DNA of 64,000 nt from positions 372,001-436,000 of the forward strand of contig NC_015416.1 of NCBI RefSeq assembly GCF_000204415.1. The letters are read 5' to 3'. The position numbers were made by a program, and so were the translations under genes. Shown here piece by piece: positions 46,696 to 61,633 of the stretch. The notes under the pieces are model-generated. The model worked only from the letters and a program-made list of their open reading frames with translations, was not told the origin of the DNA and ran no database searches. The DNA is from Methanothrix soehngenii GP6. GTDB lineage: Archaea; Halobacteriota; Methanosarcinia; Methanotrichales; Methanotrichaceae. Every line of letters begins with the position of its first letter. Within the stretch, counting starts at the first letter, position 1.

Positions 46696-46719
46696 ATTAC
46701 TGCATCTAGCTGCAGTAAT
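46696..46719. promoter_or_regulatory. NikR-like operator candidate: ATTAC-N14-GTAAT palindrome
   Basis: Nine-bp perfect arms, ATTACTGCA and TGCAGTAAT, separated by TCTAGC. Read as half-sites it is ATTAC-14 nt-GTAAT, the spacing reported for NikR sites of the GTGTTAC-N13/14-GTAACAC type. It is 316 bp upstream of the transporter start. A related site lies at 57850-57875. Confidence 0.5.
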
Positions 46720-46899: not shown

Positions 46900-46948
46900 T
46901 ATAAGCTAATTATAATTTGTAATAACGAAAAGTCTTAAGTATAAGCTA
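46900..46948 (+). promoter_or_regulatory. Promoter-like A/T tract with two TATAAGCTA repeats
   Basis: TATAAGCTA occurs at 46900 and 46940, the first followed by ATTATAATT. Box-A-like sequence 85-135 bp upstream of the operon's GTG. The exact duplication could be two promoters or a regulator's direct repeat. Confidence 0.4.
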
Positions 46949-47034: not shown

Positions 47035-48174
47035 GTGAGTAAAAGAAACCTTTGGAATAGATCGATAATAATATTATTTATATGCTCTATAATTTTCCTG
47101 AGCTCTACTGCCCTGGCATCATACCCCAAGACCTTTACCGACACCCAGGGCCGGGAGATCACTCTTGATGAATCCCCGCAGAGGATAATCACCAGAGCCC
47201 CGGACGAGGCCAGAATCGTGATCGCCCTGGGCTACGGAGACAAGCTAGTCGCCGGTGAGCAGGCTACCAAATCCTGCCTCTGCCCAATGACCTTTAGCAA
47301 CACCACCGAAGGTTGCCTGGAGTGCTATGAGAACATCATTGACGGCCGGATGCCCGACCTTCCCGAGATCAGCACCAGGTACGACATCTATTTCGAGGAG
47401 ATCGCCAGGCTGGAGCCCGACCTTATATTTTGCGGAAACCTGAAGGATGCAGAGGCCTTTGAGGACAAGATTGGCTGCCCGGTGGTAGTTCTTGGAGGAC
47501 AGGGCTGGAACTTCGGCGATGAGGGCTACTTCGATAGCATCCGCGTGGCCGGCGAGGCCCTGGATGCTCGGGATCAGGCAGATGAGCTCATCGCCTTTGC
47601 CAAGGGCAAGGTGGAAATGATCGAATCGGTGACAAAAGAGATAGATCCTGATGATCGGCCAAAGGTCTACTTCGCCTCCCGAGGTGCAAGCAATGCCTTT
47701 TATGATCCCAAAGAGGGAAGGGACTTCACCAGAACCGAACCCAAATACGATCCTCTGACCATCGCCGGCGGCAACAACATCGCCTCGGAGATCAACGGCT
47801 CTACAGTTAATGTGGCCCTGGAGCAGATCATAGCCTGGAACCCTGACTTCATATTCATATCCAACAGCAATGCGGGAAACAATACAGGCCTTGATTTCAT
47901 CAAGAACAGCCCTGAGCTGGCCTCCATCAACGCCATAAAGGAAGGCAACGTCTTCAACTGCTTCTATCCCCACTGCCGGGGCACTCCGCCTGACAGAAAC
48001 CTGTTTAACATGATGTACATGGCCAAGGTGATGTACCCGGAGGAGTTTGAGGATCTCGACCTGGAGAAAGAGGGCAATGAGATATTCAAGGCCTTCTTGG
48101 GAGTGGACGGCGTCTTCACCGAGTATGCCGACTACCTGGTCTGGCCAAGAGAGTACCTGGACAGCCTGAAATAG
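47035..48174 (+). CDS. ABC transporter substrate-binding protein, FecB/BtuF type, with Cys-rich insert
   Basis: 379 residues from GTG 47035, set by GGAGGA at 47024-47029. Signal peptide (IIILFICSIIFLSSTALA), then the periplasmic-binding type II fold: TFTDTQGREITLDESPQRIITR, ARLEPDLIFCG and IAWNPDFIFISNS are the usual landmarks of iron-siderophore/cobalamin-binding proteins. Unusual is KSCLCPMTFSNTTEGCLECY (near residue 82), four cysteines in CxC...CxxC where most relatives have none. First gene of a five-gene operon with a methyltransferase, slipin, permease and ATPase. Confidence 0.85.
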   Translation: MSKRNLWNRSIIILFICSIIFLSSTALASYPKTFTDTQGREITLDESPQRIITRAPDEARIVIALGYGDKLVAGEQATKSCLCPMTFSNTTEGCLECYENIIDGRMPDLPEISTRYDIYFEEIARLEPDLIFCGNLKDAEAFEDKIGCPVVVLGGQGWNFGDEGYFDSIRVAGEALDARDQADELIAFAKGKVEMIESVTKEIDPDDRPKVYFASRGASNAFYDPKEGRDFTRTEPKYDPLTIAGGNNIASEINGSTVNVALEQIIAWNPDFIFISNSNAGNNTGLDFIKNSPELASINAIKEGNVFNCFYPHCRGTPPDRNLFNMMYMAKVMYPEEFEDLDLEKEGNEIFKAFLGVDGVFTEYADYLVWPREYLDSLK

Positions 48175-48182
48175 GTGCTCTC

Positions 48183-49028
48183 ATGCCGGGAATCATTAAC
48201 TGGGACGAGCTGTGGAAGGCCACCCATGCAGGCGGGTTTCACCACCATGGCCGGGACGGCCAGGATCTGGCATCCCATTGGGATAGTAAGGCCCGAGGGT
48301 TCAACAAGAGGGTGATGAAGAATCCCGCAAGGGCAACAAATCAGGTGGCCACCCTCGGCCTCCTTTCTCATGAGACAGTACTGGATGTGGGCGCCGGCAC
48401 AGGAAGGCTGGCGATTCCCATGGCTCGAATAGCCAGGAGCGTAACAGCTCTTGATCAATCCAAGGGAATGCTGGCCTGCCTCGAGGAGAACATGGCTAAA
48501 GAGGGCATAGAGAACATCCGTACCATCCAGAAGAGCTGGGAGGAGCTGGCCGAGGGTGAGATCGAGCTGCACGACGTGGTCTTATCCTCCAACTCTTTGG
48601 GGGTGTTGAACCTAAGAGAGTCCCTGGCCAAGATGGACTCTATGGCCAAAAGGGCGGTCTATATCTTCACATTCGCCGATCGGAGGAGAGACGACGGCTT
48701 TGCAGACTTCCTGAGGGGAGGCAAAAGGGCCCGCCATCATTTCGGCGGCCCAGCTGACTACCTGGTGATATACAACCTCCTGGCGGATATGGGAATTTTC
48801 GCCGACATCAAGATCATGAACTGGCAGTCCTCCGAGCACTACTCAAGTCTTGATGAGGCGGTAGCTGAGTGGAAGGAGATGCACGAAATACCAGCGGAAA
48901 GAGAGCCCGAGCTGCGAGAGTTTCTATCCGGGAAGCTGACTGAAAGTGATCAAGGGCTGTGCATGCATCGCCACCACAAGCAGGCCATGATCTCCTGGCA
49001 GAAGGACCAGCCTGCGTCTGAGCATTAA
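48183..49028 (+). CDS. Class I SAM-dependent methyltransferase in an ABC transporter operon
   Basis: 281 residues. TVLDVGAGTGRLAIPMARIA (near residue 63) is the SAM motif I, VTALDQSKGML motif II, and HDVVLSSNSLGVL motif IV. The N-terminus NWDELWKATHAGGFHHHGRDG and the His-rich C-terminus (CMHRHHKQ) are distinctive and may bind metal. Gap of 8 bp to the binding-protein gene. By context it may methylate the transported chelate or cofactor, but that is inference; the reaction is unknown. Confidence 0.8.
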   Translation: MPGIINWDELWKATHAGGFHHHGRDGQDLASHWDSKARGFNKRVMKNPARATNQVATLGLLSHETVLDVGAGTGRLAIPMARIARSVTALDQSKGMLACLEENMAKEGIENIRTIQKSWEELAEGEIELHDVVLSSNSLGVLNLRESLAKMDSMAKRAVYIFTFADRRRDDGFADFLRGGKRARHHFGGPADYLVIYNLLADMGIFADIKIMNWQSSEHYSSLDEAVAEWKEMHEIPAEREPELREFLSGKLTESDQGLCMHRHHKQAMISWQKDQPASEH

Positions 49029-49048
49029 ATGCAGGGGAGGACAATACA

Positions 49049-49831
49049 ATGGTCTCCATTCCCATTCTGGCCGGATCGGCTCTGTTGATAGTAATACTGG
49101 CCTCGAGCATCCGGGTGGTGAGGCAATACGAGCGAGCGGTTATATTCCGCCTGGGCAAGATCAAGAAGGAGAGAGGTCCAGGCCTCTTTGCTCTCATTCC
49201 TCTGGCGGATAAGATGGTCCGGGTGGACATGAGGGTGCGAGAGCTTGATGTGCCCAAACAGACGGTGATCAGCAAGGACAATGTCACTCTAGAGGTGGAT
49301 GCGGTCATCTACTACAAGGTGATGGATGCCTCTCGGGCGATCATCGAGGTAGAGGACTTCGAGGCCGCCACCCTTCTTCTGGCTCAAACCACCCTGAGAG
49401 ATATCCTGGGACAGAATGAACTGGACACCATCCTCTCCGATCGGGACGATCTCAATAAGAGGATCAAGGAGATCCTGGACTCGACCACTGGCCCCTGGGG
49501 CATGCACGTGGTGATGGTCACCATGAGGGACGTATCATTGCCGGAGAACATGCTGCGCGCCATCGCCCGCCAGGCAGAGGCGGAGAGAGAGAAGAGAGCC
49601 CGGATCATCCTGGCAGAAGGAGAGTATCAGGCCTCAAAGATGATGAACCAGGCAGCGGATATGTACGAGGACAAGCCGAGCGCTCTGAAGCTGAGGGAGT
49701 ACCAGACCCTGACCGAGATTGCTAAAGAGAAGAACCTGATAGTGGTCTCCACCGGATCAGATGATGGTCACAGGAATTCGGACCTTCCCCTTTTCATGGG
49801 GCTGGCCAGGGCGGCTGTGAGCAATAAATGA
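49049..49831 (+). CDS. Slipin/stomatin-like SPFH protein
   Basis: 260 residues. N-terminal membrane helix (PILAGSALLIVILASSIRVV), then the SPFH domain: YERAVIFRLGKIKKERGPGLFALIP and VRELDVPKQTVISKDNVTLEVDAVIYYKV, then the heptad-rich REKRARIILAEGEYQAS. It would oligomerise in membrane microdomains. Archaeal slipins are usually paired with an NfeD protease; here it is within the transporter operon, overlapping the permease start by 4 bp, and no NfeD gene is nearby. Role inferred: membrane scaffold or quality control for the importer. Confidence 0.9.
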   Translation: MVSIPILAGSALLIVILASSIRVVRQYERAVIFRLGKIKKERGPGLFALIPLADKMVRVDMRVRELDVPKQTVISKDNVTLEVDAVIYYKVMDASRAIIEVEDFEAATLLLAQTTLRDILGQNELDTILSDRDDLNKRIKEILDSTTGPWGMHVVMVTMRDVSLPENMLRAIARQAEAEREKRARIILAEGEYQASKMMNQAADMYEDKPSALKLREYQTLTEIAKEKNLIVVSTGSDDGHRNSDLPLFMGLARAAVSNK

Positions 49832-50958
49832 CCAGCTTTCGGGCACTCTTCTTCCGGGGCAAGCCCGACGCTGGCTACTCTCGGGCGAAGAGGTCGGGCA
49901 AGAAGAGCAACCACGAGCTGGCCCATGAGAGATTCAAGTTCATCAGAATCTTATTCGTGCTGGGCATCGCCGGCCTTCTGGTCCTTCTCACCGGGCTCAT
50001 AATCACCCTCGGCCCCCTGGATATATCCGTGCTCGATTCTTATTCTGCCCTCCTGGCCCGCTTCTGGCCGGAGCACTTCTATGTGGACGAGCTCACCAGC
50101 CGGGTGGTCTGGAACATCCGCTTTCCCAGAATCATGGGAGGAATCATGGCCGGCTTTGGGCTGGGAATATGCGGCTGCGTGATGCAGGCGGTCCTAAAGA
50201 ACCCTCTCGCCAGCCCCTTCACCCTGGGAATCACTGCCGGTGCCCAGTTTGGCATATCCCTGGCCGCAGTCATCGGCTTTTCATTTCTTGCCGGTCCCTA
50301 TTTCATAATCGGTAATGCCTTCCTCTGCGCCCTCTTCTGCTCTCTGTTCATCATCGGCCTGGCCGCCATCAAAGGAGCAACCTCTGAGAACCTGGTCCTG
50401 GCAGGAATCGCCGTCAACTACTTCTTCACTGCGATCAGCCAGCTGCTCAAGTACTTCGCCACCGACGAGCAGCTTCGCCTCATGACAAACTGGGGAATGG
50501 GGGATCTCGCTGCCTTCTCCTGGACCAACTCCAGGATACTTTTGGCCATATTCGTCATCTGCATTCCTCTGCTCATGACCAAATGCTGGGACCTGAACAT
50601 CATGACGGCAGGAGACGAGACCGCCAAGAGCATCGGGGTCAATGCTGAGAGGACGCGCATCTTCATAATGGTGGTCAGCAGCCTGCTGGTCGCGACCATT
50701 GTCTCATTCATGGGGACCATCGCCTTTGTGGGGCTGGTCGCCCCTCACATGGCCCGGATGGTCATCGGCGGAGACCACCGTTTCCTCATCCCCGCCTCGG
50801 GAGTGCTGGGAGCACTGGTTTTAATGTCTGCCGATGCCGCGGGAATGAATCTGATCGCCCCCACCATCATACCCACAGGAATCATGACATCGATTGTTGG
50901 AGTCCCGTTCTTCATGTATCTGATGATGAAAGGAAAGAGAAAGGAGTTTTGGACATGA
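49828..50958 (+). CDS. FecCD-family ABC transporter permease
   Basis: 376 residues with about ten helices. A ~45-residue basic N-terminal extension (KRSGKKSNHELAHERFK) precedes the first helix. MGGIMAGFGLGICGCVMQAVLKNPLASPFTLGITAGAQFG and FVGLVAPHMARMVIGGDHR are the family's signature and the ATPase-coupling motif. Substrates in the family are ferric siderophores, heme, cobalamin and, in some bacteria, nickel. Overlaps its neighbours by 4 bp on both sides. Confidence 0.95.
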   Translation: MTSFRALFFRGKPDAGYSRAKRSGKKSNHELAHERFKFIRILFVLGIAGLLVLLTGLIITLGPLDISVLDSYSALLARFWPEHFYVDELTSRVVWNIRFPRIMGGIMAGFGLGICGCVMQAVLKNPLASPFTLGITAGAQFGISLAAVIGFSFLAGPYFIIGNAFLCALFCSLFIIGLAAIKGATSENLVLAGIAVNYFFTAISQLLKYFATDEQLRLMTNWGMGDLAAFSWTNSRILLAIFVICIPLLMTKCWDLNIMTAGDETAKSIGVNAERTRIFIMVVSSLLVATIVSFMGTIAFVGLVAPHMARMVIGGDHRFLIPASGVLGALVLMSADAAGMNLIAPTIIPTGIMTSIVGVPFFMYLMMKGKRKEFWT

Positions 50959-51743
50959 TGATCAAGCTTCAGGCCAAGGATATGGATTTTGGCTATAACA
51001 GCAGCAAGATACTTCAAAATGTGAACTTCGAGATCGCCCCTTCAAAGCTGGTCACCATCGTTGGGCCGAACGGCTCCGGCAAGTCAACATTGATCAAGTG
51101 CATAGACCGGATTCTTGCCCCTCAGGGGGGAAGCATCCTCATCGACCGGAAGGATGTGACCAGAATGACCCGGATGGATATGGCCAAATATCTCTCCTAT
51201 GTTCCCCAGAGCTCTGTGAGGATCTTTCCAACCAACGTCTTTGACACCATTCTGATGGGCAGGAGGCCCCATATCGGCTGGTTGGGCAGCGAGAGGGACG
51301 AGGATAAGGTCTGGGAGGTCCTGAGGCTTCTTGATATCGAGAGGCTGGCCATGAGCAACTTCAGTGAGCTCTCCGGCGGCCAGCAGCAGAAGGTCCTTAT
51401 CGCCCGAGCGTTGGTCCAGGAGGCAGAGGTGATGCTCCTGGATGAGCCCACCAGCAACCTGGATATCTGGCATCAGCTGGATGTGATGAACATCATTCGG
51501 GATGTGGTCAAGAAAAAGGAGATCACTGCCATCATGGCCCTGCATGATCTGAACCTCGCCTCCTACTACTCCGACCGGATCATCATGATGAATAGAGGCA
51601 AGATAATAGCCGCTGGCGATCCCCAATCGGTGATCACCGAGGAGAACATAGCAAAGGTCTATCGGGTGGAGGCGGCGGTGAGGAGCCTCTCCGACCGACC
51701 GGTAATAATGCCCTTGCGGCAGATCCGGGGAGCAAGGGCGTAG
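50955..51743 (+). CDS. ABC transporter ATP-binding protein, FepC/BtuD type
   Basis: 262 residues from ATG 50955, overlapping the permease stop (TGA 50956-50958) as ATGA. Walker [14 protein letters not shown]-loop VPQSSVRIFPTNVFDTILMGRRPH, signature LSGGQQQKVLIARALVQ, Walker B EVMLLDEPTSNLD and the H-loop MALHDLNLA are all intact. The energy-coupling subunit of the operon. The last gene of the rightward operon; the next gene (51795) is on the opposite strand. Confidence 0.96.
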   Translation: MMIKLQAKDMDFGYNSSKILQNVNFEIAPSKLVTIVGPNGSGKSTLIKCIDRILAPQGGSILIDRKDVTRMTRMDMAKYLSYVPQSSVRIFPTNVFDTILMGRRPHIGWLGSERDEDKVWEVLRLLDIERLAMSNFSELSGGQQQKVLIARALVQEAEVMLLDEPTSNLDIWHQLDVMNIIRDVVKKKEITAIMALHDLNLASYYSDRIIMMNRGKIIAAGDPQSVITEENIAKVYRVEAAVRSLSDRPVIMPLRQIRGARA

Positions 51744-51794: not shown

Positions 51795-52394
51795 TCAACC
51801 TTTTCGCCGGGCAGCAGATGCTTGAAACATCTCCCTATACTCCGCATACCTGCCGGAAAAAGCCGGATAAGTGAAGCTCATGCCGTCTTTGCCCAGCATT
51901 ACTGACAGGGGCCTTGCCCTTTGAAAGTCCATGCTTCCATCAGCATCAAAGAACCGTTCATCAACCTCCAGGTGCACCACCTTGCCGATGATGAGAACGA
52001 ACTTCTCCCTGACCAGCTCCTCTTCTAAAACGCACTCCGCCCAGGCCAGGCAGCCCTCGATTCCAGGAGCCTTGACTTTTGTGGACGGGTGGGGCTCAAG
52101 TCCCGCTTCTAAGAACTCATCCACCCCGGGAGGATAGCTTCTGGCGCAGATCATAATCGCATCCTCCATGCCCATCTGCGGGATATTCACCACAAACTCT
52201 CCCGTCCGGCGGATGTTCTCCAGGGTGTCGCGCTTGATCCAGGAAGCGAGGATGACCTCCTCCAGAGGGCGCAAAATGGGCGTGAAATTTGACCAGGGAG
52301 CAGCATTCCTGATCCCCTGCGAGGAAACGGTGGTGATGAGGACTACCGGAAGAGGCAGGATCTGCTCCCTTTGATTCGGTTTTAGGATCATCAA
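51795..52394 (-). CDS. Flavin reductase-like FMN-binding protein (flavoredoxin)
   Basis: 199 residues. PLPVVLITTVSSQGIRNAAPWSNFTPILRPLEE is the FMN-binding N-terminus of the flavin reductase-like family, and RTGEFVVNIPQ and PGIEGCLAWAECVLEEELV are conserved. Flavoredoxins transfer electrons, e.g. from ferredoxin, in anaerobes. It is the last gene of the leftward run after cooC (24-bp gap), so a redox role in metal handling is conceivable. Confidence 0.9.
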   Translation of the reverse strand: MMILKPNQREQILPLPVVLITTVSSQGIRNAAPWSNFTPILRPLEEVILASWIKRDTLENIRRTGEFVVNIPQMGMEDAIMICARSYPPGVDEFLEAGLEPHPSTKVKAPGIEGCLAWAECVLEEELVREKFVLIIGKVVHLEVDERFFDADGSMDFQRARPLSVMLGKDGMSFTYPAFSGRYAEYREMFQASAARRKG

Positions 52395-53246: not shown

Positions 53247-54866
53247 TCATCTAACGAAAGATTGCTTATTGATGGCGATGGGTATGCCATTGGCAACTCC
53301 CTGCTTGGTGTAATAGGCATCCACCAGGCCATTATGAGCCCAGTAGGAGTCCGAATAGTAGAGAGGCAGCGCCGGCAAATCTTGGGCATAGACCTCCTGG
53401 ACCTCGTCTACCAGTTCCTTGCGCTTGGAAGCATCAGTCTCTGAGACCTCCTGGTCCAGGAGATCATTGAGCTTCTGATCAGCAGTGTAGCGAGCACTGT
53501 TGAAGAAATAGCCCTCGCCGATGATGCGGTTCAGAATCTCAGGGTCGCCGCCCATGCCACCATGGCTGTTCAGGGCCAGATCGAAGTTCCACTGTCCTAC
53601 AAGGCTGTCCAGAGTCTTTGCATCCACACTGCGCAAGTTTACCTTAAAACCAGCCTTTTCCAGTTGCTGCCGTATCATCTCTCCCACGCGCTCGGTTGCT
53701 GCAGTGACCAGCAACTCCAACACCAGGGGCTCACCACCTTTGGAGAAATACTGCCCGTCTTTGGCGTAGCCCAGCTCAGACATCAGCTCCGCTGTCTTGA
53801 TCGGATCATATTTGTATGGCTCCACATCAGGATTGTACCACTCACTATCCGGGGCAAAAAGTCCAGAGCTTGCGATGATGCCATAGCCACGCAGTGCAAC
53901 GTCCACTAGAGCCTGACGATCTATGGCGTAGTATAGCGCTTGCCTGAGCTTGGTGTCAGAAAGAGGCTCCTTATTATGGTTGATCATTATCTTGGTGATT
54001 CCATCGCGTGGTCCATCTAAAACCACAAAGTTCTCCTTCCTGAGTTTCTCTACCGTCTCTGCAGGCACAACGACTGCATCAACATCTCCTTTCTCAAGAG
54101 CGGCTGCAGCCATCTCATTGCTTATCTTCACGAACTTGAGCTGCTTTACTTTTGGAGCGCCCAGATAGTAGCCGTCATAGGCTTCGTAAAGATACGTCCC
54201 TTGAGTCTTGTCGTAATTCACGAGCTTGTAAGGACCTGTGCCGATGAGGGCCTTATCATCCTGGAACTCGGCCGGATTGCTGACACTTTTGTAGATATGC
54301 TCTGGAAGAATGGGGAGCGTGCCGACTACCATATCCAGAAAAGGAGCATAAGAATGGTTCAGGTAGATCTTCACGGTATTGTCATCCAGAGCTTCAGCCT
54401 TCTTAACTGGCTCGGAGTTGACCCACGGATAAGGGTGCTGCTTGATGTAGTCAATAGTAAAGACCACGTCATTGGCGGTGAACTTCTCGCCATCATTCCA
54501 CGTGACGTTTTTTCTCAAGCTGAAGACGTAGGCGTCGTTTCCTTCCATCTGCCAGCTCTCAGCTAGGGCAGGCACGTAGCCGTCTTGGTCCTTCCATACC
54601 AAAGTGTCGAAGATGAGGCTCATTCTGATGTAGCCGGGACCGCGAGAGTAGTGACCGTAGGGCGAAGGAAATCCCCAGTCACCTGTGGTATCGGCGATGG
54701 TGAGCACATCTATCGTTTCATCTGCTGCTATCGACGTGCTGCATAATAGTAGGAGCAGCAAGCCAGCAGATGCAAATCCAAGTGCAAGAAGGCATTTCAC
54801 AGGCAAAGCATCCTTTCGATAGTTACGCCATTTTTTCTTAGCAATCAACTTAGGCATATTTAACAT
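53247..54866 (-). CDS. ABC transporter solute-binding protein, family 5 (dipeptide/nickel type)
   Basis: 539 residues. Signal peptide (CLLALGFASAGLLLLLLCS) followed by the SBP_bac_5 fold: YVPALAESWQMEGNDAYVFSLRKNVTWNDG, LPILPEHIYKS, LRQALYYAIDRQALVD. Binds oligopeptides, nickel chelates or similar. No permease or ATPase is adjacent, and the only related gene in the window is the dppC remnant at 24711. Its position 73 bp upstream of cooC makes a nickel (NikA-like) role attractive but unproven. Start ATG 54866 (GGAGAT abutting) or 54857. Confidence 0.88.
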   Translation of the reverse strand: MLNMPKLIAKKKWRNYRKDALPVKCLLALGFASAGLLLLLLCSTSIAADETIDVLTIADTTGDWGFPSPYGHYSRGPGYIRMSLIFDTLVWKDQDGYVPALAESWQMEGNDAYVFSLRKNVTWNDGEKFTANDVVFTIDYIKQHPYPWVNSEPVKKAEALDDNTVKIYLNHSYAPFLDMVVGTLPILPEHIYKSVSNPAEFQDDKALIGTGPYKLVNYDKTQGTYLYEAYDGYYLGAPKVKQLKFVKISNEMAAAALEKGDVDAVVVPAETVEKLRKENFVVLDGPRDGITKIMINHNKEPLSDTKLRQALYYAIDRQALVDVALRGYGIIASSGLFAPDSEWYNPDVEPYKYDPIKTAELMSELGYAKDGQYFSKGGEPLVLELLVTAATERVGEMIRQQLEKAGFKVNLRSVDAKTLDSLVGQWNFDLALNSHGGMGGDPEILNRIIGEGYFFNSARYTADQKLNDLLDQEVSETDASKRKELVDEVQEVYAQDLPALPLYYSDSYWAHNGLVDAYYTKQGVANGIPIAINKQSFVR

Positions 54867-55865: not shown

Positions 55866-57806
55866 TCAGACCTTCGGCCCGTATGCAATGAGCCTCATGG
55901 AATTCAATATCACCGGGATGGATGACAGCTCATGGAGTAGTGCTCCGGAGACGGGTGTCAGTATCCCCGGCACAGTCAGTGCAACTGCTACCGCCAGCAC
56001 CCCAAGGGAGAAGGCCAGGTTGTGCTTTATAGTCTTGATCGCCTTGCGTGAGACTTTGATTAGATGAGGCATCTTGGAGAGGTCATCAGAGAGAAGGCCT
56101 ATATCCGCCGTCTCCATGGCTACATCAGTTCCCGCAATGCCCATGGCTATGCCTACATCCGCCTGGGCCAGAGCCGGGCCATCGTTCACCCCCTCGCCAA
56201 CAAATGCCACTTTGCGTCCCTTGGATTGCAGCTCCTTTACTATCTGGACCTTCTCCTGCGGCATCTTCTCGAAAAATAGCTCCCTGACTCCAATTCTGCT
56301 GGCCACCCGCTCTGTAGACGCTCGATTGTCGCCGGTGACGATCACCACATCCAGACCCAACTCGTCCAGCTTCTGCACGACATTATGCGACTCTGGCCTC
56401 AGTTCGTCCTCGAATACGAATAGCCCCTCTGTCCGACCGCCTGCAGCCAAGAGTATAACGCTGCAGCCAGTAGCCTCCAGAGATTCAGCCCTCTCTTTAA
56501 TATCCTGGCCGACAAAAATCCCTTCTCGTTCCAGGCTGCTTGTCCTTCCCAGGAATATCTCCTGACCGTCTACATTGGCCCTTATTCCTAATCCCGGCAG
56601 AGGTTCAAAGAACTGGGGGTCGACAAGATCCAGATCCCTGCTTTTGGCCTCATCGACCATCGCTCTGCCCAGAGGGTGCTCGCTGAACTTCTCCCCCCTG
56701 GCAGCCTTCTCCAGAAGTTCATCCTGGGAATTATCTCCCAGAGCCTCGATCTGGAGAAGCTTCGGCTTTCCTGCCGTCAGCGTTCCCGTCTTGTCGAATA
56801 TCACTGTATCCACATTTGATAGAGCCTCGATGGTTGCCCCTTTCTTGATGAGGCTTCCTCTCATGGCGGCATTTCCAATGGCGGCAACGAGAGCCGTCGG
56901 CGTGGCCAGCACAATCACGCAGGGGCAGAAGACGATGAGCATGGTGATAGCCCTCATGATATCTCCGCTCCACCACCACAAAAGCGCTCCTGCGATGAGG
57001 GCTGTGGGCATATAGATCTTAGCGTAGCGGTTTAGTAGCCTCTCTATGGGCGGCTTATGGGCTTGAGCCTCCTCGATCAGAGTGCGGATCTGGCCAAGAG
57101 TGGTCTCGCTCCCTATGCCGGTGACGAGCACCTCAATGGCACCCACCTCCAGAAGGGTTCCGGCAAAGACCTTATCCCCTGCCTTCTTCTCAACCGCCAG
57201 GCTCTCCCCGGTTATGGCTGCCTGGCTGACAGAGGCAACGCCAGAGACAACCTCGCCATCCACAGCAATCCTCTCTCCGGACCGGACAAGAAGCATATCC
57301 CCTGCTCGAACCTCCTCCAGGCACACTGTCAGATCTCGGCCCTCTCTGCGCACGGTAACGCTATCGGGCAGGAGACAGGATAGGGACTCAAGCGATTGAT
57401 TAGCCCTAGCGGCGACGAATTCCTCGAGGAGGCCTCCTAAGAGGAGAAGGACGGCCACCACCGCAGCTGCTGCATACTCGCCAATGGTGATCGCCGCCAT
57501 TGTGGCAATGGATACGGGAATATCGGCTGTGAAGTCCCGTTCCCTTATGTCCTGCAAAGCAGACCACCAAATATAAGAGGAGCCGAGAAGGGCCGCGGCC
57601 AGATAGAGGATGCTTCCTCCTTCATGCACCTCACCATGATACAGGCCGCCCGGATCGCTGATGACAGCCAGAATCAGGAGAATGCCGCAGGATAAGGTGA
57701 TGAGAGTGCCGGGATCGACAAGAAAGCTCCTGTAGCGATGCAGCCAGTGACTGCTCTTGCAGGCAGCGGCTCCGGTGACCGTATCATTGTTATTATTGTC
57801 AGGCAT
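55866..57806 (-). CDS. Heavy-metal P1B-type ATPase
   Basis: 646 residues. No N-terminal metal-binding (HMA) domain; the start is polar and Asn-rich. MLIVFCPCVIVLATPTALVAA holds the CPC transport motif (Cys ~294, 296), VIFDKTGTLTAG the phosphorylated Asp (~338), and EHPLGRAMVDEA the HP motif; GEGVNDGPALAQADVGIAMG is the hinge. The last helix reads ALLHELSSIPVILNSMRL, whose HELSS differs from the usual copper (MxxSS), zinc (DxG) and cobalt (HEGG) motifs, so metal choice is uncertain. Probably an efflux pump. Preceded by a NikR-like palindrome. Confidence 0.93.
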   Translation of the reverse strand: MPDNNNNDTVTGAAACKSSHWLHRYRSFLVDPGTLITLSCGILLILAVISDPGGLYHGEVHEGGSILYLAAALLGSSYIWWSALQDIRERDFTADIPVSIATMAAITIGEYAAAAVVAVLLLLGGLLEEFVAARANQSLESLSCLLPDSVTVRREGRDLTVCLEEVRAGDMLLVRSGERIAVDGEVVSGVASVSQAAITGESLAVEKKAGDKVFAGTLLEVGAIEVLVTGIGSETTLGQIRTLIEEAQAHKPPIERLLNRYAKIYMPTALIAGALLWWWSGDIMRAITMLIVFCPCVIVLATPTALVAAIGNAAMRGSLIKKGATIEALSNVDTVIFDKTGTLTAGKPKLLQIEALGDNSQDELLEKAARGEKFSEHPLGRAMVDEAKSRDLDLVDPQFFEPLPGLGIRANVDGQEIFLGRTSSLEREGIFVGQDIKERAESLEATGCSVILLAAGGRTEGLFVFEDELRPESHNVVQKLDELGLDVVIVTGDNRASTERVASRIGVRELFFEKMPQEKVQIVKELQSKGRKVAFVGEGVNDGPALAQADVGIAMGIAGTDVAMETADIGLLSDDLSKMPHLIKVSRKAIKTIKHNLAFSLGVLAVAVALTVPGILTPVSGALLHELSSIPVILNSMRLIAYGPKV

Positions 57807-58007: not shown

Positions 58008-59075
58008 TTACATTACGCCCGCAACCTTCAGCGGATGCATTCCGGCGTTTTGCATCTGGGCGAGGGTGGCAGCATCCACCTTGAATTCCTTGAGGACGGT
58101 TATGAACACCTCTGGATTATCTTCATAGGGCATGAGGGCGATGTCCCAGTATATCATCGATCCCCAGGAAGGCCCGTTCCACTTTGGCAGATCTACAGCG
58201 CTGAAGTTGTAAGCCAGCACCAGTGCATCGCCCTCTTTGGCAGTATCATTCCAGCGGATGTAGATGCCGGCGACGTTGGGCACCGCCTTCTTCTCGGCAT
58301 CCGTCAGGGCCATCACAAACATTCCGCTCTTTCCGGGAGTGGCATCCCAGCGCATCTGGAACAGGTCGTCTTTGCACCACTGGGGACAGGCTATTACCTT
58401 ATAGCTCTCGCTGCTATTGGTTATCGGCAGCTTCTCCTCGACAAACTCAGCGATATGAAGGCCACTGGTGACCCCAGGGCAGAGATGGTCATGGAATGCA
58501 GTAGCCTGGAGGAAGTCATAGGATGCTCCCCTTGCCCAGACATTGGACATTGCCACAAGTCCGAACTCATTGCCGTTGAAGGCTTTATCGTTGAAGGTGA
58601 CATTGCCTTCATCTGTATGGTTCTGCAGATATTCTATATCCACGTTGGCTTTTGATATCTTGCTGAATACCTGATCGTCCGGCAAGTCAAGAAACTCATC
58701 GAGACTCTTGCTCAAGGCCTCGGAGTTTGCCTCCAGATACACTGCTTCGCCGGTGGATTTATCGAAGAAGTAGAACCAGAGGGGCTTCCAGTGAGCGCGC
58801 AGAGGCCTGAAAAGGTTTCCATCGCCGATGCTGTTTCCGCTTTCATTTGTGATTCCCTTGATCGCAGCCTGAGATGTCTGGCCATCGACGATGGCATGCC
58901 CGGCATCGGTTAAAGCCAGGACATTAGCATCTCCCTTCTCGAATCCCAGATCCTGCATCGCCTTCTGGGCGGCTTTGCCTCCCAGCGCTTCCATTAATGC
59001 ATTGTCCGCCATGGCCAATCCCGGAACCAGAGCCAGGAGAAGGACCATGGTTATGGTTTGATACTTCATTTTCAT
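58008..59075 (-). CDS. Secreted FmdE-family protein (formylmethanofuran dehydrogenase subunit E-like)
   Basis: 355 residues from ATG 59075 (AGAGG upstream). Signal peptide (MVLLLALVPGLAMA), a ~170-residue N-terminal part containing NALMEALGGKAAQKAMQDLG, and a C-terminal FmdE-type domain with the TAFHDHLCPGVTSGLHIAEF motif and ACPQWCKDDLFQMRW. The His/Cys set binds metal. Despite its name, the family is not a subunit of the dehydrogenase in most cases and is often linked to metal transport. Location outside the cell, beside a P1B ATPase, fits metal sensing or delivery; not demonstrated. Confidence 0.85.
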   Translation of the reverse strand: MKMKYQTITMVLLLALVPGLAMADNALMEALGGKAAQKAMQDLGFEKGDANVLALTDAGHAIVDGQTSQAAIKGITNESGNSIGDGNLFRPLRAHWKPLWFYFFDKSTGEAVYLEANSEALSKSLDEFLDLPDDQVFSKISKANVDIEYLQNHTDEGNVTFNDKAFNGNEFGLVAMSNVWARGASYDFLQATAFHDHLCPGVTSGLHIAEFVEEKLPITNSSESYKVIACPQWCKDDLFQMRWDATPGKSGMFVMALTDAEKKAVPNVAGIYIRWNDTAKEGDALVLAYNFSAVDLPKWNGPSWGSMIYWDIALMPYEDNPEVFITVLKEFKVDAATLAQMQNAGMHPLKVAGVM

Positions 59076-59409
59076 ACGAATTCCTCTGATCTTATGCAAT
59101 TGACATCAGTCTATTTAAGATTTTTCTTCAAATTTGTAGCATAAATAGCGTAATACTATGTATTGTCTATCCTTCATGGAGCTCGTGCAAGTCTTGGCTA
59201 AACAAATCACATAACCTACGATTATTTGTTGATACGTATTTGATATCATTTCCATATTTAAATCTATTTTCTTCAGAAAAGTTAATAAAGATTAAATCTA
59301 ATCCCTGATCTATTGTAGTGAAGCAATTACGATAGCAAATAATTGTAATAAATTGTAAAAAAATGGAATGTTCAAAAGAGGTTGAAAAGAAGAGAGAGAT
59401 GAAGATGAA
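59076..59409. other. A/T-rich intergenic region
   Basis: 334 bp between divergent genes. The left part holds the FmdE promoter (a TTTAAGATTTTT tract near 59115) and a palindrome at 59152-59164. The right part (59240-59390) is strongly A/T-rich. No gene or repeat is seen. Confidence 0.5.
59152..59164. promoter_or_regulatory. Palindrome AATAC-TAT-GTATT upstream of the FmdE gene
   Basis: Five-bp arms, 3-bp spacer, within GTAATACTATGTATTG. The GTAATACT portion matches the sequence at 55764-55771, inside the promoter palindrome of the truncated metal-binding gene. Confidence 0.4.
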
Positions 59410-60393
59410 GTGACAGCTGGAATTGATGTAAGAGGGCTTTCCAAGCTTTATAACGGCAAGATCAGAGCCTTGGACGGGGTCGATCTGAGGGTAGAGGCAG
59501 CCAGAGTCTTCGCCTTTCTCGGTCCAAATGGCTCTGGCAAGACCACCTTGATGAGAATACTGACCACCCAGATCAGGCCGACCTCGGGCCAAGCATCCAT
59601 CTTCGGCTTGGATGCGATTCGGAATGGTCAAGAAATCAGAAGGATCATCGGCTATGTGCCTCAGGAGACCAGCGTCTGGCTGGATATCAGCGGATACGAG
59701 AATCTGCTGGTCTATTCCAAGATCTATGGCGTTCCAGCTGGAATGAGGCAGAAGAGGATACAGGATGCACTGCAGAGCATGGGCATCGAGGAGATGGCGG
59801 ACAGGATGGTCAAGAGCTACTCCGGAGGGATGGTGCGGCGGCTGGAGATCGCCTGCGCCCTTCTGGTAGGGCCCAAGATTCTATTTCTGGATGAGCCGAC
59901 GATAGGCCTGGACCCGTCGGCAAGAAAGGCAGTCTGGGAGAACCTGATCTCATTCAAGAAGGAGTATGGGACCACAGTCTTCTTCAATACCCATTATATG
60001 GATGAGGCAGACCTCTACTCCGATGAGATAGCCATAATAAATAAGGGCAGCATTGTGAAATCCGGAACGGCAAGCGAGCTCAAGCAATCTTTAAGGAGCG
60101 AGATCATTCAGGTTTATCCAGATGGCAGGATCGATGGGCAGGTTCTGAAGAGCATCAGGGATTTGGCATTTGTCCGGGGTGCAATCAATAATAACTCCCA
60201 CCTGGAGATAGTGGTCGAGGACTCGGAGACCAAACTGCCTTTGATCCTGGATGTCTTGAGGAACGAGGGCGTATCCCTGAAGAGAATCTGCACTGCCAAG
60301 CCTACATTGGATGACGTATTCCTCAAATACGCCGGTGCAATCCGTTTCAAAGGCAAGGGAGAGGACTCGGCCGAAAAAGCACTGCAGGCATGA
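59410..60393 (+). CDS. ABC-2 exporter ATP-binding protein, DrrA type
   Basis: 327 residues. Walker A FLGPNGSGKTTLMRI, Q-loop GYVPQETSVWLDISGYENL, signature YSGGMVRRLEIACAL, Walker B ILFLDEPTIGLDPSA, H-loop NTHYMDEAD; the C-terminal ~90 residues match the DrrA regulatory tail. Start GTG 59410. It pairs with the permease gene at 60390 (ATGA overlap), which is interrupted. The ATPase itself looks intact. Substrate unknown; drug or lipid export is typical. Confidence 0.93.
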   Translation: MTAGIDVRGLSKLYNGKIRALDGVDLRVEAARVFAFLGPNGSGKTTLMRILTTQIRPTSGQASIFGLDAIRNGQEIRRIIGYVPQETSVWLDISGYENLLVYSKIYGVPAGMRQKRIQDALQSMGIEEMADRMVKSYSGGMVRRLEIACALLVGPKILFLDEPTIGLDPSARKAVWENLISFKKEYGTTVFFNTHYMDEADLYSDEIAIINKGSIVKSGTASELKQSLRSEIIQVYPDGRIDGQVLKSIRDLAFVRGAINNNSHLEIVVEDSETKLPLILDVLRNEGVSLKRICTAKPTLDDVFLKYAGAIRFKGKGEDSAEKALQA

Positions 60394-61633
60394 TTAATAT
60401 GGCTCTAGATGATTCGATCAGGGAGATGTTTGCCATGATTGAGCTGGAGATCAGAAGGCTCAGGCATGACCGCACCGAGATCTACACCCGGGCAGTGCAG
60501 CCCATACTGTGGCTGGGCGTCTTCGGAACGATCATGGGCCGGGTCAATGCCATACCCACCGGCGGGCTGCCCTATATCGATTACATCACGCCAGGTGTGC
60601 TGCTCCAGTCCACCATATTCGTCTCTGTATTCTATGGCCTGACCATCGTCTGGGAGAGGGAGACTGGAATTTTAAAGAGGCTTCTTGTGGCTCCCACCTC
60701 CATTTATGCCACGGTCGTCGGCCGATCGGCCGCCTCCGGGGTGCGAGCGGTAGTCCAGGCTTTGATAATATTCCCCGTGGCCATGCTGCTGGGGGGTGAA
60801 CTCCTCCCACGGCCTAAAGGCCGGGGCTTCCCTGCTGCTTCTTCGCTTTTACGCCGTCATAGCCCTCTGGCATCGGGGCGCGTTTCGCGGGAATTTTCGG
60901 TTTCCGTTTCATTGGCCCAAACTTACATCAGATTCGCGATGCAGAGGTTCAGATCTCATCGGACAGGTTCGGGGTGTTCCCTCCCTACTCTGTGGAATCG
61001 TCTGGCGAATCCAAAATCTCCCCGAGGGAGAAGTGATCGATCATCCAAGTAGCACTTGAAGCCTGCATGGAATCATGTCTTGGTTAAGTGGAGGGAACGA
61101 TGAGATATATAGTTGTTCTGCGCGGGACAAAAGTAATTGGGGCAAAGGACTCCGCTTTCATCCTGTTGCGACTTCGTCGCAACTCCCCAGGACTCGCAGT
61201 CCGGGAGATCCACCCTGAAGGATGGGGACTTCCCGCTTCGTCCTTCGCAATCCCACGAGTTAAATTCATAGCCAATCCATTTTACATAGCAGCAGCATTT
61301 CTGATCCTATTTCTGGTCTCGGGAGGATTTGCTGCCATCTCCATCCTGGTTGCCTCCATCATGAAGACCAGGGAGAGGTTCATGGGGCTGGGCCAGGCCC
61401 TGATCATGCCTCTTTTCTTTGCCAGCAATGCCCTCTACCCCATAGATATGATGCCCTCTGCTCTGCAGCTGTTCGCCGTGCTTAATCCCCTCACCTATGC
61501 AGTGGATGCGATAAGGGGCCTGATGATCAGCGGGGAGCTGGGCAACATTCTGGTAGATGTGCTGGCCATACTGGTCTTCGATATGGTGGTCTTCGCCCTT
61601 GCATCGTTGAGCTTCAGGAAGATTCTAGAATGA
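60390..61633 (+). pseudogene. ABC-2 exporter permease (DrrB type), split by an insertion
   Basis: The first part (to ~60793) reads MALDDSIREMF..., IYTRAVQPILWLGVFGTIMG, ETGILKRLLVAPTSIYATVV and ends VAMLLGG. The second part resumes at ~61261 with VKFIANPFYIAAAFLILFLV and GLGQALIMPLFFASNALYPIDMMP to the stop at 61633. The two halves join smoothly as one six-helix ABC-2 permease. They lie in different frames, separated by a ~465-bp insert, so the gene is broken unless the insert is removed. Residues read through the insert are unrelated to the family. Confidence 0.9.
60796..61259 (-). mobile_element. Non-autonomous IS200/IS605-like element inserted in the permease gene
   Basis: Length ~465 bp. 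Left end: ACTCCTCCCACGGCCTAAAG with a perfect hairpin CGGCCT-AA-AGGCCG (60810-60823), a pattern I associate with tnpB-side ends of IS200/IS605 elements. Right portion: perfect hairpins GTTGCGA-CTTCG-TCGCAAC (61165-61183) and GGACT-CGC-AGTCC (61190-61202), then CTTCGTCCTTCGCAATCCCACGAG. No transposase or TnpB frame survives. No direct target duplication is seen, as expected of the family. If so, its tnpB direction is the minus strand. Family call is by resemblance only. Confidence 0.65.

What the first reader, a model, noticed from the sequence alone, without database searches (positions are those of the whole stretch)
47035..51743. Five-gene importer operon that includes a methyltransferase and a slipin
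The binding protein, methyltransferase, SPFH protein, FecCD permease and ATPase are tightly spaced, with ATGA overlaps on both sides of the permease. A SAM methyltransferase and a membrane-scaffold protein are not standard parts of a BtuCDF-type importer. Inference: the methyltransferase may modify the imported metal chelate or tetrapyrrole, and the slipin may organise the importer in the membrane. The methyltransferase's His-rich ends (FHHHGRDG and MHRHHK) are compatible with metal contact.
Basis: partly seen in the sequence, partly recalled or inferred. Interest (0 to 1): 0.66.

Follow-up and report, generated by a model that had tools for sequence, protein, structure and literature searches.

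The report
Metal-chelate importer with dedicated slipin, methyltransferase
In acetate-using methane-producing archaea, a five-gene operon joins a metal-chelate importer to a methyltransferase and to its own membrane-scaffold (slipin) protein; the set is conserved across many species and points to an undescribed way of taking up a metal, perhaps nickel.

Summary
Five genes (binding protein, SAM methyltransferase, slipin, FecCD permease, ATPase) run from 47035 to 51743 with gaps of 8 and 20 bases and two ATGA overlaps. All are under purifying selection, and one promoter-like element is conserved upstream. The grouping is not accidental: of 33 copies of this slipin, all 32 testable ones sit directly before FecCD, and in 29 of 33 the methyltransferase sits directly before the slipin. 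The importer slipin is a clade of its own (99/99 support), distinct from the NfeD-partnered slipin that the genome also keeps. The methyltransferase family is wider: 50 of 83 members with usable flanks lie near a FecCD- or Nik/Dpp-type importer, 18 near a CooC-like (nickel-insertion type) ATPase. Some copies adjoin nitrogenase-like genes. The window carries CooC-like, NikA-like, FmdE and P-type ATPase genes next door. Best reading: a metal-chelate importer, possibly for nickel, with the methyltransferase acting on the ligand and the slipin organising the importer. Metal, ligand and reaction are not shown. The His-rich ends are not conserved, so that argument fails. New variant of a known kind.

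The parts
46924..46941 (+). promoter-like element AACGAAAAGTCTTAAGTA (BRE/TATA-like)
   Evidence: conserved upstream of the PBP gene in ten Methanothrix sequences; only site with up to 2 mismatches in the genome
47035..48174 (+). class III substrate-binding protein with N-terminal membrane/signal helix and Cys-rich insert
   Evidence: PF01497; nearest solved structure 2etv; alignment
48183..49028 (+). class I SAM-dependent methyltransferase of an importer-associated archaeal family
   Evidence: PF13649; family and neighbourhoods; model pLDDT 84
49049..49831 (+). importer-dedicated slipin (SPFH)
   Evidence: PF01145; own clade 99/99; directly before FecCD in 32 of 32 testable copies
49828..50958 (+). 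FecCD permease
   Evidence: PF01032; ATGA overlap with the slipin gene
50955..51743 (+). ABC ATPase of the importer
   Evidence: PF00005; ATGA overlap with the permease gene
51795..52394 (-). flavin reductase-like protein, convergent neighbour that recurs with this gene set
   Evidence: PF01613; same FlavRed-CooC pairing next to MTase and FecCD in L127 and in L162
52419..53228 (-). CooC-like ATPase with CxC motif
   Evidence: best solved structure CooC 3kje, E 5.7e-17; recurs near 18 of 83 MTase genes
53247..54866 (-). NikA/Dpp-type substrate-binding protein
   Evidence: PF00496; best NCBIfam model TIGR02294 NikA at 149.9 bits, below its cut-off of 393

Best explanation
The operon encodes a type II (FecCD/BtuCD-like) ABC importer for a chelated metal. 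The binding protein catches the complex outside the cell, and a FecCD dimer with two ATPases moves it in. The slipin is a duplicate of the housekeeping slipin that lost its NfeD partner and now assembles around or beside the importer. The methyltransferase methylates a small molecule linked to the cargo, most likely the ligand, helping to release the metal or to process the ligand. The metal is possibly nickel, passed on through the neighbouring CooC-like ATPase. Shown: gene content, conserved order, purifying selection, separate slipin clade, metal-related neighbours. Inferred: slipin-importer contact, methylation of the ligand, nickel. My estimates: one functional unit 0.95; metal-chelate importer 0.75; slipin acts on the importer 0.6; methyltransferase acts on the cargo ligand 0.4; nickel 0.4.
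For: Order conserved around 33 slipin copies; slipin clade 99/99 and 64-100% identity band against 62% or lower for the canonical slipin; canonical slipin has NfeD, importer slipin does not. All genes under purifying selection. PBP nearest to iron/siderophore PBPs, with CeuE-Ni-His in the same list. CooC-like, NikA-like, FmdE and heavy-metal P-type ATPase genes adjoin. 50 of 83 MTase genes lie near importers, 18 near CooC-like genes. FecCD-type nickel importers are known (NiuBDE, PMC5140060).
Against: No substrate, metal or reaction is shown. 31 of 83 family MTases have none of these neighbours. CbiM-type Ni/Co importers are present in every family genome searched, so nickel import does not depend on this operon. 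The slipin is absent from 22 of 50 family genomes (some are incomplete). NikA-like is below the NikA cut-off.
Confidence: 0.5

Rival explanations
1. Tetrapyrrole salvage: the importer brings in a corrinoid or a nickel or iron tetrapyrrole, and the methyltransferase, with nitrogenase-like reductases in some genomes, remodels it.
For: Nitrogenase-like NifD/NifD/NifH genes follow the ATPase in L148 and L149 and lie among MTase and FecCD genes in L061, L121 and L125; known members of that superfamily reduce tetrapyrroles, though others reduce sulfur compounds (PMC11423573). FecCD importers include vitamin B12 and heme carriers. ChlM and CbiT are among many methyltransferase fold matches.
Against: Permease and ATPase are below the cut-offs for BtuC, BtuD, heme and F420-0 models. 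The window operon has no adjacent nitrogenase-like gene. CooC-like and NikA-like neighbours fit metal better.
Confidence: 0.22
2. Self-made metallophore cycle: the methyltransferase helps to make a chelator, an ABC-2 exporter secretes it, and the FecCD importer brings the loaded form back.
For: An ABC-2 exporter pair stands directly upstream of the operon in L039, L040, L043-L045, L053 and L145 and next to the FlavRed-CooC-NikA trio in the own genome (L162). NikA-like also scores against CntA of the staphylopine system.
Against: No backbone-forming biosynthetic enzyme was recognised; the exporter is not beside the operon in the window; the ABC-2 permease at 60390-61630 is interrupted.
Confidence: 0.13
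3. Ordinary iron-siderophore importer; methyltransferase and slipin are passengers with unrelated roles such as membrane quality control.
For: PBP neighbours are iron/siderophore binders. The methyltransferase family also occurs away from importers (31 of 83).
Against: The slipin clade was never found away from FecCD in the sample, while a housekeeping slipin is kept elsewhere. Iron(II) rather than iron(III) is the predominant form in anoxic habitats (PMC9431491).
Confidence: 0.15

Closest known systems
FecCD/BtuCD-type (type II) ABC importers of siderophores, heme and vitamin B12
   Same: PBP of PF01497, one FecCD permease, one ATPase
   Different: Adds a methyltransferase and a dedicated slipin; below cut-offs of all curated substrate-specific models tried
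NiuBDE nickel importer of Helicobacter pylori (PMC5140060)
   Same: FecCD-type permease and ATPase with a class III binding protein of the CeuE kind; CeuE-Ni-His appears in the PBP fold matches
   Different: No methyltransferase or slipin is described with it; PBP identity to CeuE is only about 17%
Slipin-NfeD (stomatin operon) pair
   Same: Same slipin family; the own genome also has the NfeD-partnered pair
   Different: Importer slipin has no NfeD gene beside it and forms a separate clade
CpaM, corrinoid protein-associated methyltransferase (NF043040)
   Same: Best curated match of the methyltransferase, over the SAM-binding half only
   Different: 51 bits against a cut-off of 180; 95 of 281 residues matched; partners are importer genes
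CooC nickel-insertion ATPase
   Same: Neighbouring ATPase is nearest to CooC, CxC motif aligned
   Different: The own genome has another CooC-like gene inside its CODH/ACS operon (L165); this one goes with importer genes

Membership tests
FecCD/BtuCD-type (type II) ABC importer | FecCD permease, ABC ATPase and Peripla_BP_2 binding protein above Pfam cut-offs | tested here: met
   288.9, 118.1 and 105.5 bits against 26.5, 25 and 27.5
Vitamin B12 importer BtuCDF | curated BtuC/BtuD models above cut-off | tested here: not met
   permease 207.4 of 461 and 193.4 of 334; ATPase 128.7 of 281
Heme ABC importer | NF010068 ATPase above cut-off | tested here: not met
   231.6 of 261 bits
Nickel importer of the NiuBDE kind | binds and transports nickel | not testable with these tools
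   needs binding and uptake assays
Slipin / SPFH | Band_7 domain with N-terminal membrane segment | tested here: met
   PF01145 136.6 bits; hydrophobic N-terminus in all aligned copies except the short-called L146 ORF
Slipin-NfeD (stomatin operon) pair | adjacent NfeD gene | tested here: not met
   FecCD follows the slipin in 32 of 32 testable copies; NfeD found beside canonical slipins in L116 and L118
CpaM methyltransferase | NF043040 above cut-off | tested here: not met
   51 of 180 bits
Class I SAM-dependent methyltransferase | SAM-binding motif and fold | tested here: met
   PF13649 48.3 of 27 bits; invariant D68, G70, G72, G74; fold matches
CooC (neighbour gene) | CooC as nearest relative with CxC motif | tested here: met
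   3kje E 5.7e-17, CxC aligned
CooC (neighbour gene) | inserts nickel into CODH | not testable with these tools
   needs biochemistry; another CooC-like gene sits in the CODH/ACS operon
NikABCDE (NikA-like neighbour) | TIGR02294 above cut-off (393 bits) | tested here: not met
   149.9 bits, best model but below cut-off

The most novel reading that the evidence does not exclude
A nickel-acquisition system of methanogens not yet described: a nickel chelate is imported by a FecCD transporter held in a dedicated slipin assembly, a methyltransferase of an unnamed family acts on the chelator to free or trap the metal, and a CooC-like ATPase hands the metal on.
Probability: 0.18. Interest if true: 0.8.

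Novelty: new variant of a known kind. Interest (0 to 1): 0.52.

Why it matters
[quoted passage not shown] A slipin clade tied strictly to one ABC importer gives a clean genetic case for asking whether slipins scaffold transporters, a question that is hard to test with broadly acting slipins. The methyltransferase family is common in methanogens, had no match above the cut-off of a specific curated model in the best 25 shown, and can be tested directly against metal chelates.

Tried and rejected
His-rich ends as a metal site: rejected on conservation and model confidence. Filing the importer as a BtuCDF, heme or F420-0 transporter: below cut-offs. CpaM: below cut-off. This as the only nickel importer: rejected; CbiM genes are in all 50 family genomes and three times in the own genome, while NicO is over its cut-off in none of the 50. 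The window CooC-like protein as the CODH CooC: unlikely, since another CooC-like gene sits in the CODH/ACS operon (L165). Promoter element as a regulon marker: one copy in the genome, so no regulon could be drawn. The sigma-70 and terminator scan does not suit archaea and told nothing. Fold searches gave only generic class I methyltransferases, so the substrate cannot be read from them. Papers searched gave no report of this operon; the library lacks most subscription papers, so that absence is weak.

Full report
1. What is there. The window is G000:C1:372001-436000 of a 3.03 Mb genome whose nearest relatives in the named collection are Methanothrix. Five genes run on the + strand: PBP 47035-48174, methyltransferase (MTase) 48183-49028, slipin 49049-49831, FecCD 49828-50958, ATPase 50955-51743. 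The gaps (8 and 20 nt) and the two ATGA overlaps leave almost no intergenic space for inner promoters. Upstream, the element AACGAAAAGTCTTAARTA is conserved in ten Methanothrix sequences and occurs once in the genome. Against three orthologues, dN/dS is 0.04-0.14 for all five genes.

2. Is the grouping real? I searched the slipin in 295 genomes of the phylum and 50 of the family. Identity falls into two bands: 64-100%, and 62% or lower. The upper band has 11 copies in 10 genomes of the phylum sample and is present in 28 of 50 genomes of the family sample. I fetched neighbourhoods. Of 33 copies read, 32 could be tested and all 32 sit directly before FecCD (L042 ends at the contig edge). The MTase sits directly before the slipin in 29 of 33; in L056 a CooC-like gene lies between; in L114 the MTase is downstream of the ATPase; L113 and L148 have none adjacent. 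Some of the 33 are close strains, so they are not 33 independent events, but they span six families of the sample (f1, f5, f7, f14, f24, f29).

3. The slipin is a specialised duplicate. In a tree, the 31 distinct importer slipins form one group with 99/99 support against five canonical slipins. Canonical slipins have an adjacent NfeD gene in the two loci scanned (L116, in the own genome, and L118), and no importer gene near them in five loci. The own genome carries both kinds. The simplest reading is that a housekeeping slipin was kept and a copy became tied to the importer.

4. The methyltransferase. It belongs to a family found in 106 of 295 phylum genomes at E <= 1e-20, with the SAM motif intact and conserved W7, W11, W33, N111, S138, L139, K150, N198 and W272. 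Of 83 members with at least 4 kb on both sides, 50 lie within 6 kb of a FecCD-type or Nik/Dpp-type importer gene, 18 near a CooC-like gene, 18 near FmdE, 5 near nitrogenase-like genes, and 31 near none of these. The set was drawn from top matches and from slipin-led fetches (19 have the slipin near), so the share is biased upward. The link with importers is wider than the slipin: PBP-MTase-FecCD occurs in Bathyarchaeia (L046, L047), and PBP-MTase-FecCD-ATPase in L085, L123 and L124. The model (pLDDT 84) has a class I methyltransferase fold; its neighbours act on many kinds of substrate, so the substrate stays open. The His-rich ends are not conserved.

5. The cargo. The PBP is nearest to the iron/siderophore group (2etv, YiuA, 4hn9), and H. 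pylori CeuE with Ni-His stands lower in the same list. It has a conserved Cys-rich insert (C81, C83, C94, C97 in the window protein) and a stretch RGAxxxFYDPKEGRDFTRT; the latter is shared by operon PBPs and by PBPs of L087 and L123, which lack the slipin. The insert is modelled with low confidence. Beside the operon, on the other strand, lie a flavin reductase, a CooC-like ATPase, a NikA-like binding protein, a heavy-metal P-type ATPase with a CPC motif and an FmdE-like protein. The trio FlavRed-CooC-NikA has a second copy in the genome next to an ABC-2 exporter pair (L162), and close relatives of that pair stand directly upstream of the importer operon in L039, L040, L043-L045, L053 and L145. 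These exchanges suggest that the modules serve one process. CooC and NikA point to nickel, but by homology only; the NikA-like protein is below the NikA cut-off, and CbiM genes of the ordinary Ni/Co importer type are also present. FecCD-type nickel importers are known (NiuBDE, PMC5140060).

6. Mechanism. Most likely the importer takes up a metal chelate, the slipin organises the importer in the membrane, and the MTase modifies the ligand in the cytoplasm. The first clause rests on protein families, the second on strict genetic linkage and the missing NfeD partner, the third on linkage alone. Rivals are tetrapyrrole salvage, suggested by the nitrogenase-like genes in L148, L149 and elsewhere; a self-made metallophore cycle, suggested by the ABC-2 exporter; and an ordinary iron importer with passenger genes, against which the strict slipin linkage speaks.

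7. Verdict. Observation confirmed; interpretation partly supported; new variant of a known kind. The strongest new fact is the importer-only slipin clade. The weakest link is the identity of ligand and metal.

Noticed in passing
window 60390-61630 (+): An ABC-2 permease gene is split in two halves by a repeat element of about 470 bp that has near-complete copies elsewhere in the genome (95-98% identity).
   Followed up: partly
window 55866-57806 (-) and 58008-59099 (-): A heavy-metal P-type ATPase with a CPC motif and an FmdE-domain protein lie close to the importer operon; the FmdE relative stands next to the operon in several other Methanothrix loci.
   Followed up: partly
L149:6502-13582; L148; L121; L125; L061; L057: Nitrogenase-like NifD/NifH genes lie directly beside MTase, PBP or FecCD genes; in L149 the order is MTase-slipin-FecCD-ATPase-NifD-NifD-NifH. 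Function unknown.
   Followed up: partly
L162:7378-12533 (own genome, near G000:C1:2034000): Second copy of the trio flavin reductase, CooC-like ATPase and NikA-like protein, here next to an ABC-2 exporter pair.
   Followed up: partly
window 46696-46719: Near-perfect 24-bp inverted repeat ATTACTGCATCT/AGCTGCAGTAAT between the operon and the divergent gene upstream.
   Followed up: no
window 47275-47328 (PBP residues 81-98): Cys-rich insert CxCP...CxxC in an extracellular binding protein, conserved in the Methanothrix operon PBPs; disulfides or a metal site.
   Followed up: partly
window 48609-48611 (MTase residue 143): The family has D here in 91% of members and the operon clade in 95%; the window protein has N.
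   Followed up: no
L057:1-10427: Eight binding-protein genes or fragments of the same family stand in a row before a nitrogenase-like gene and the MTase.
   Followed up: no
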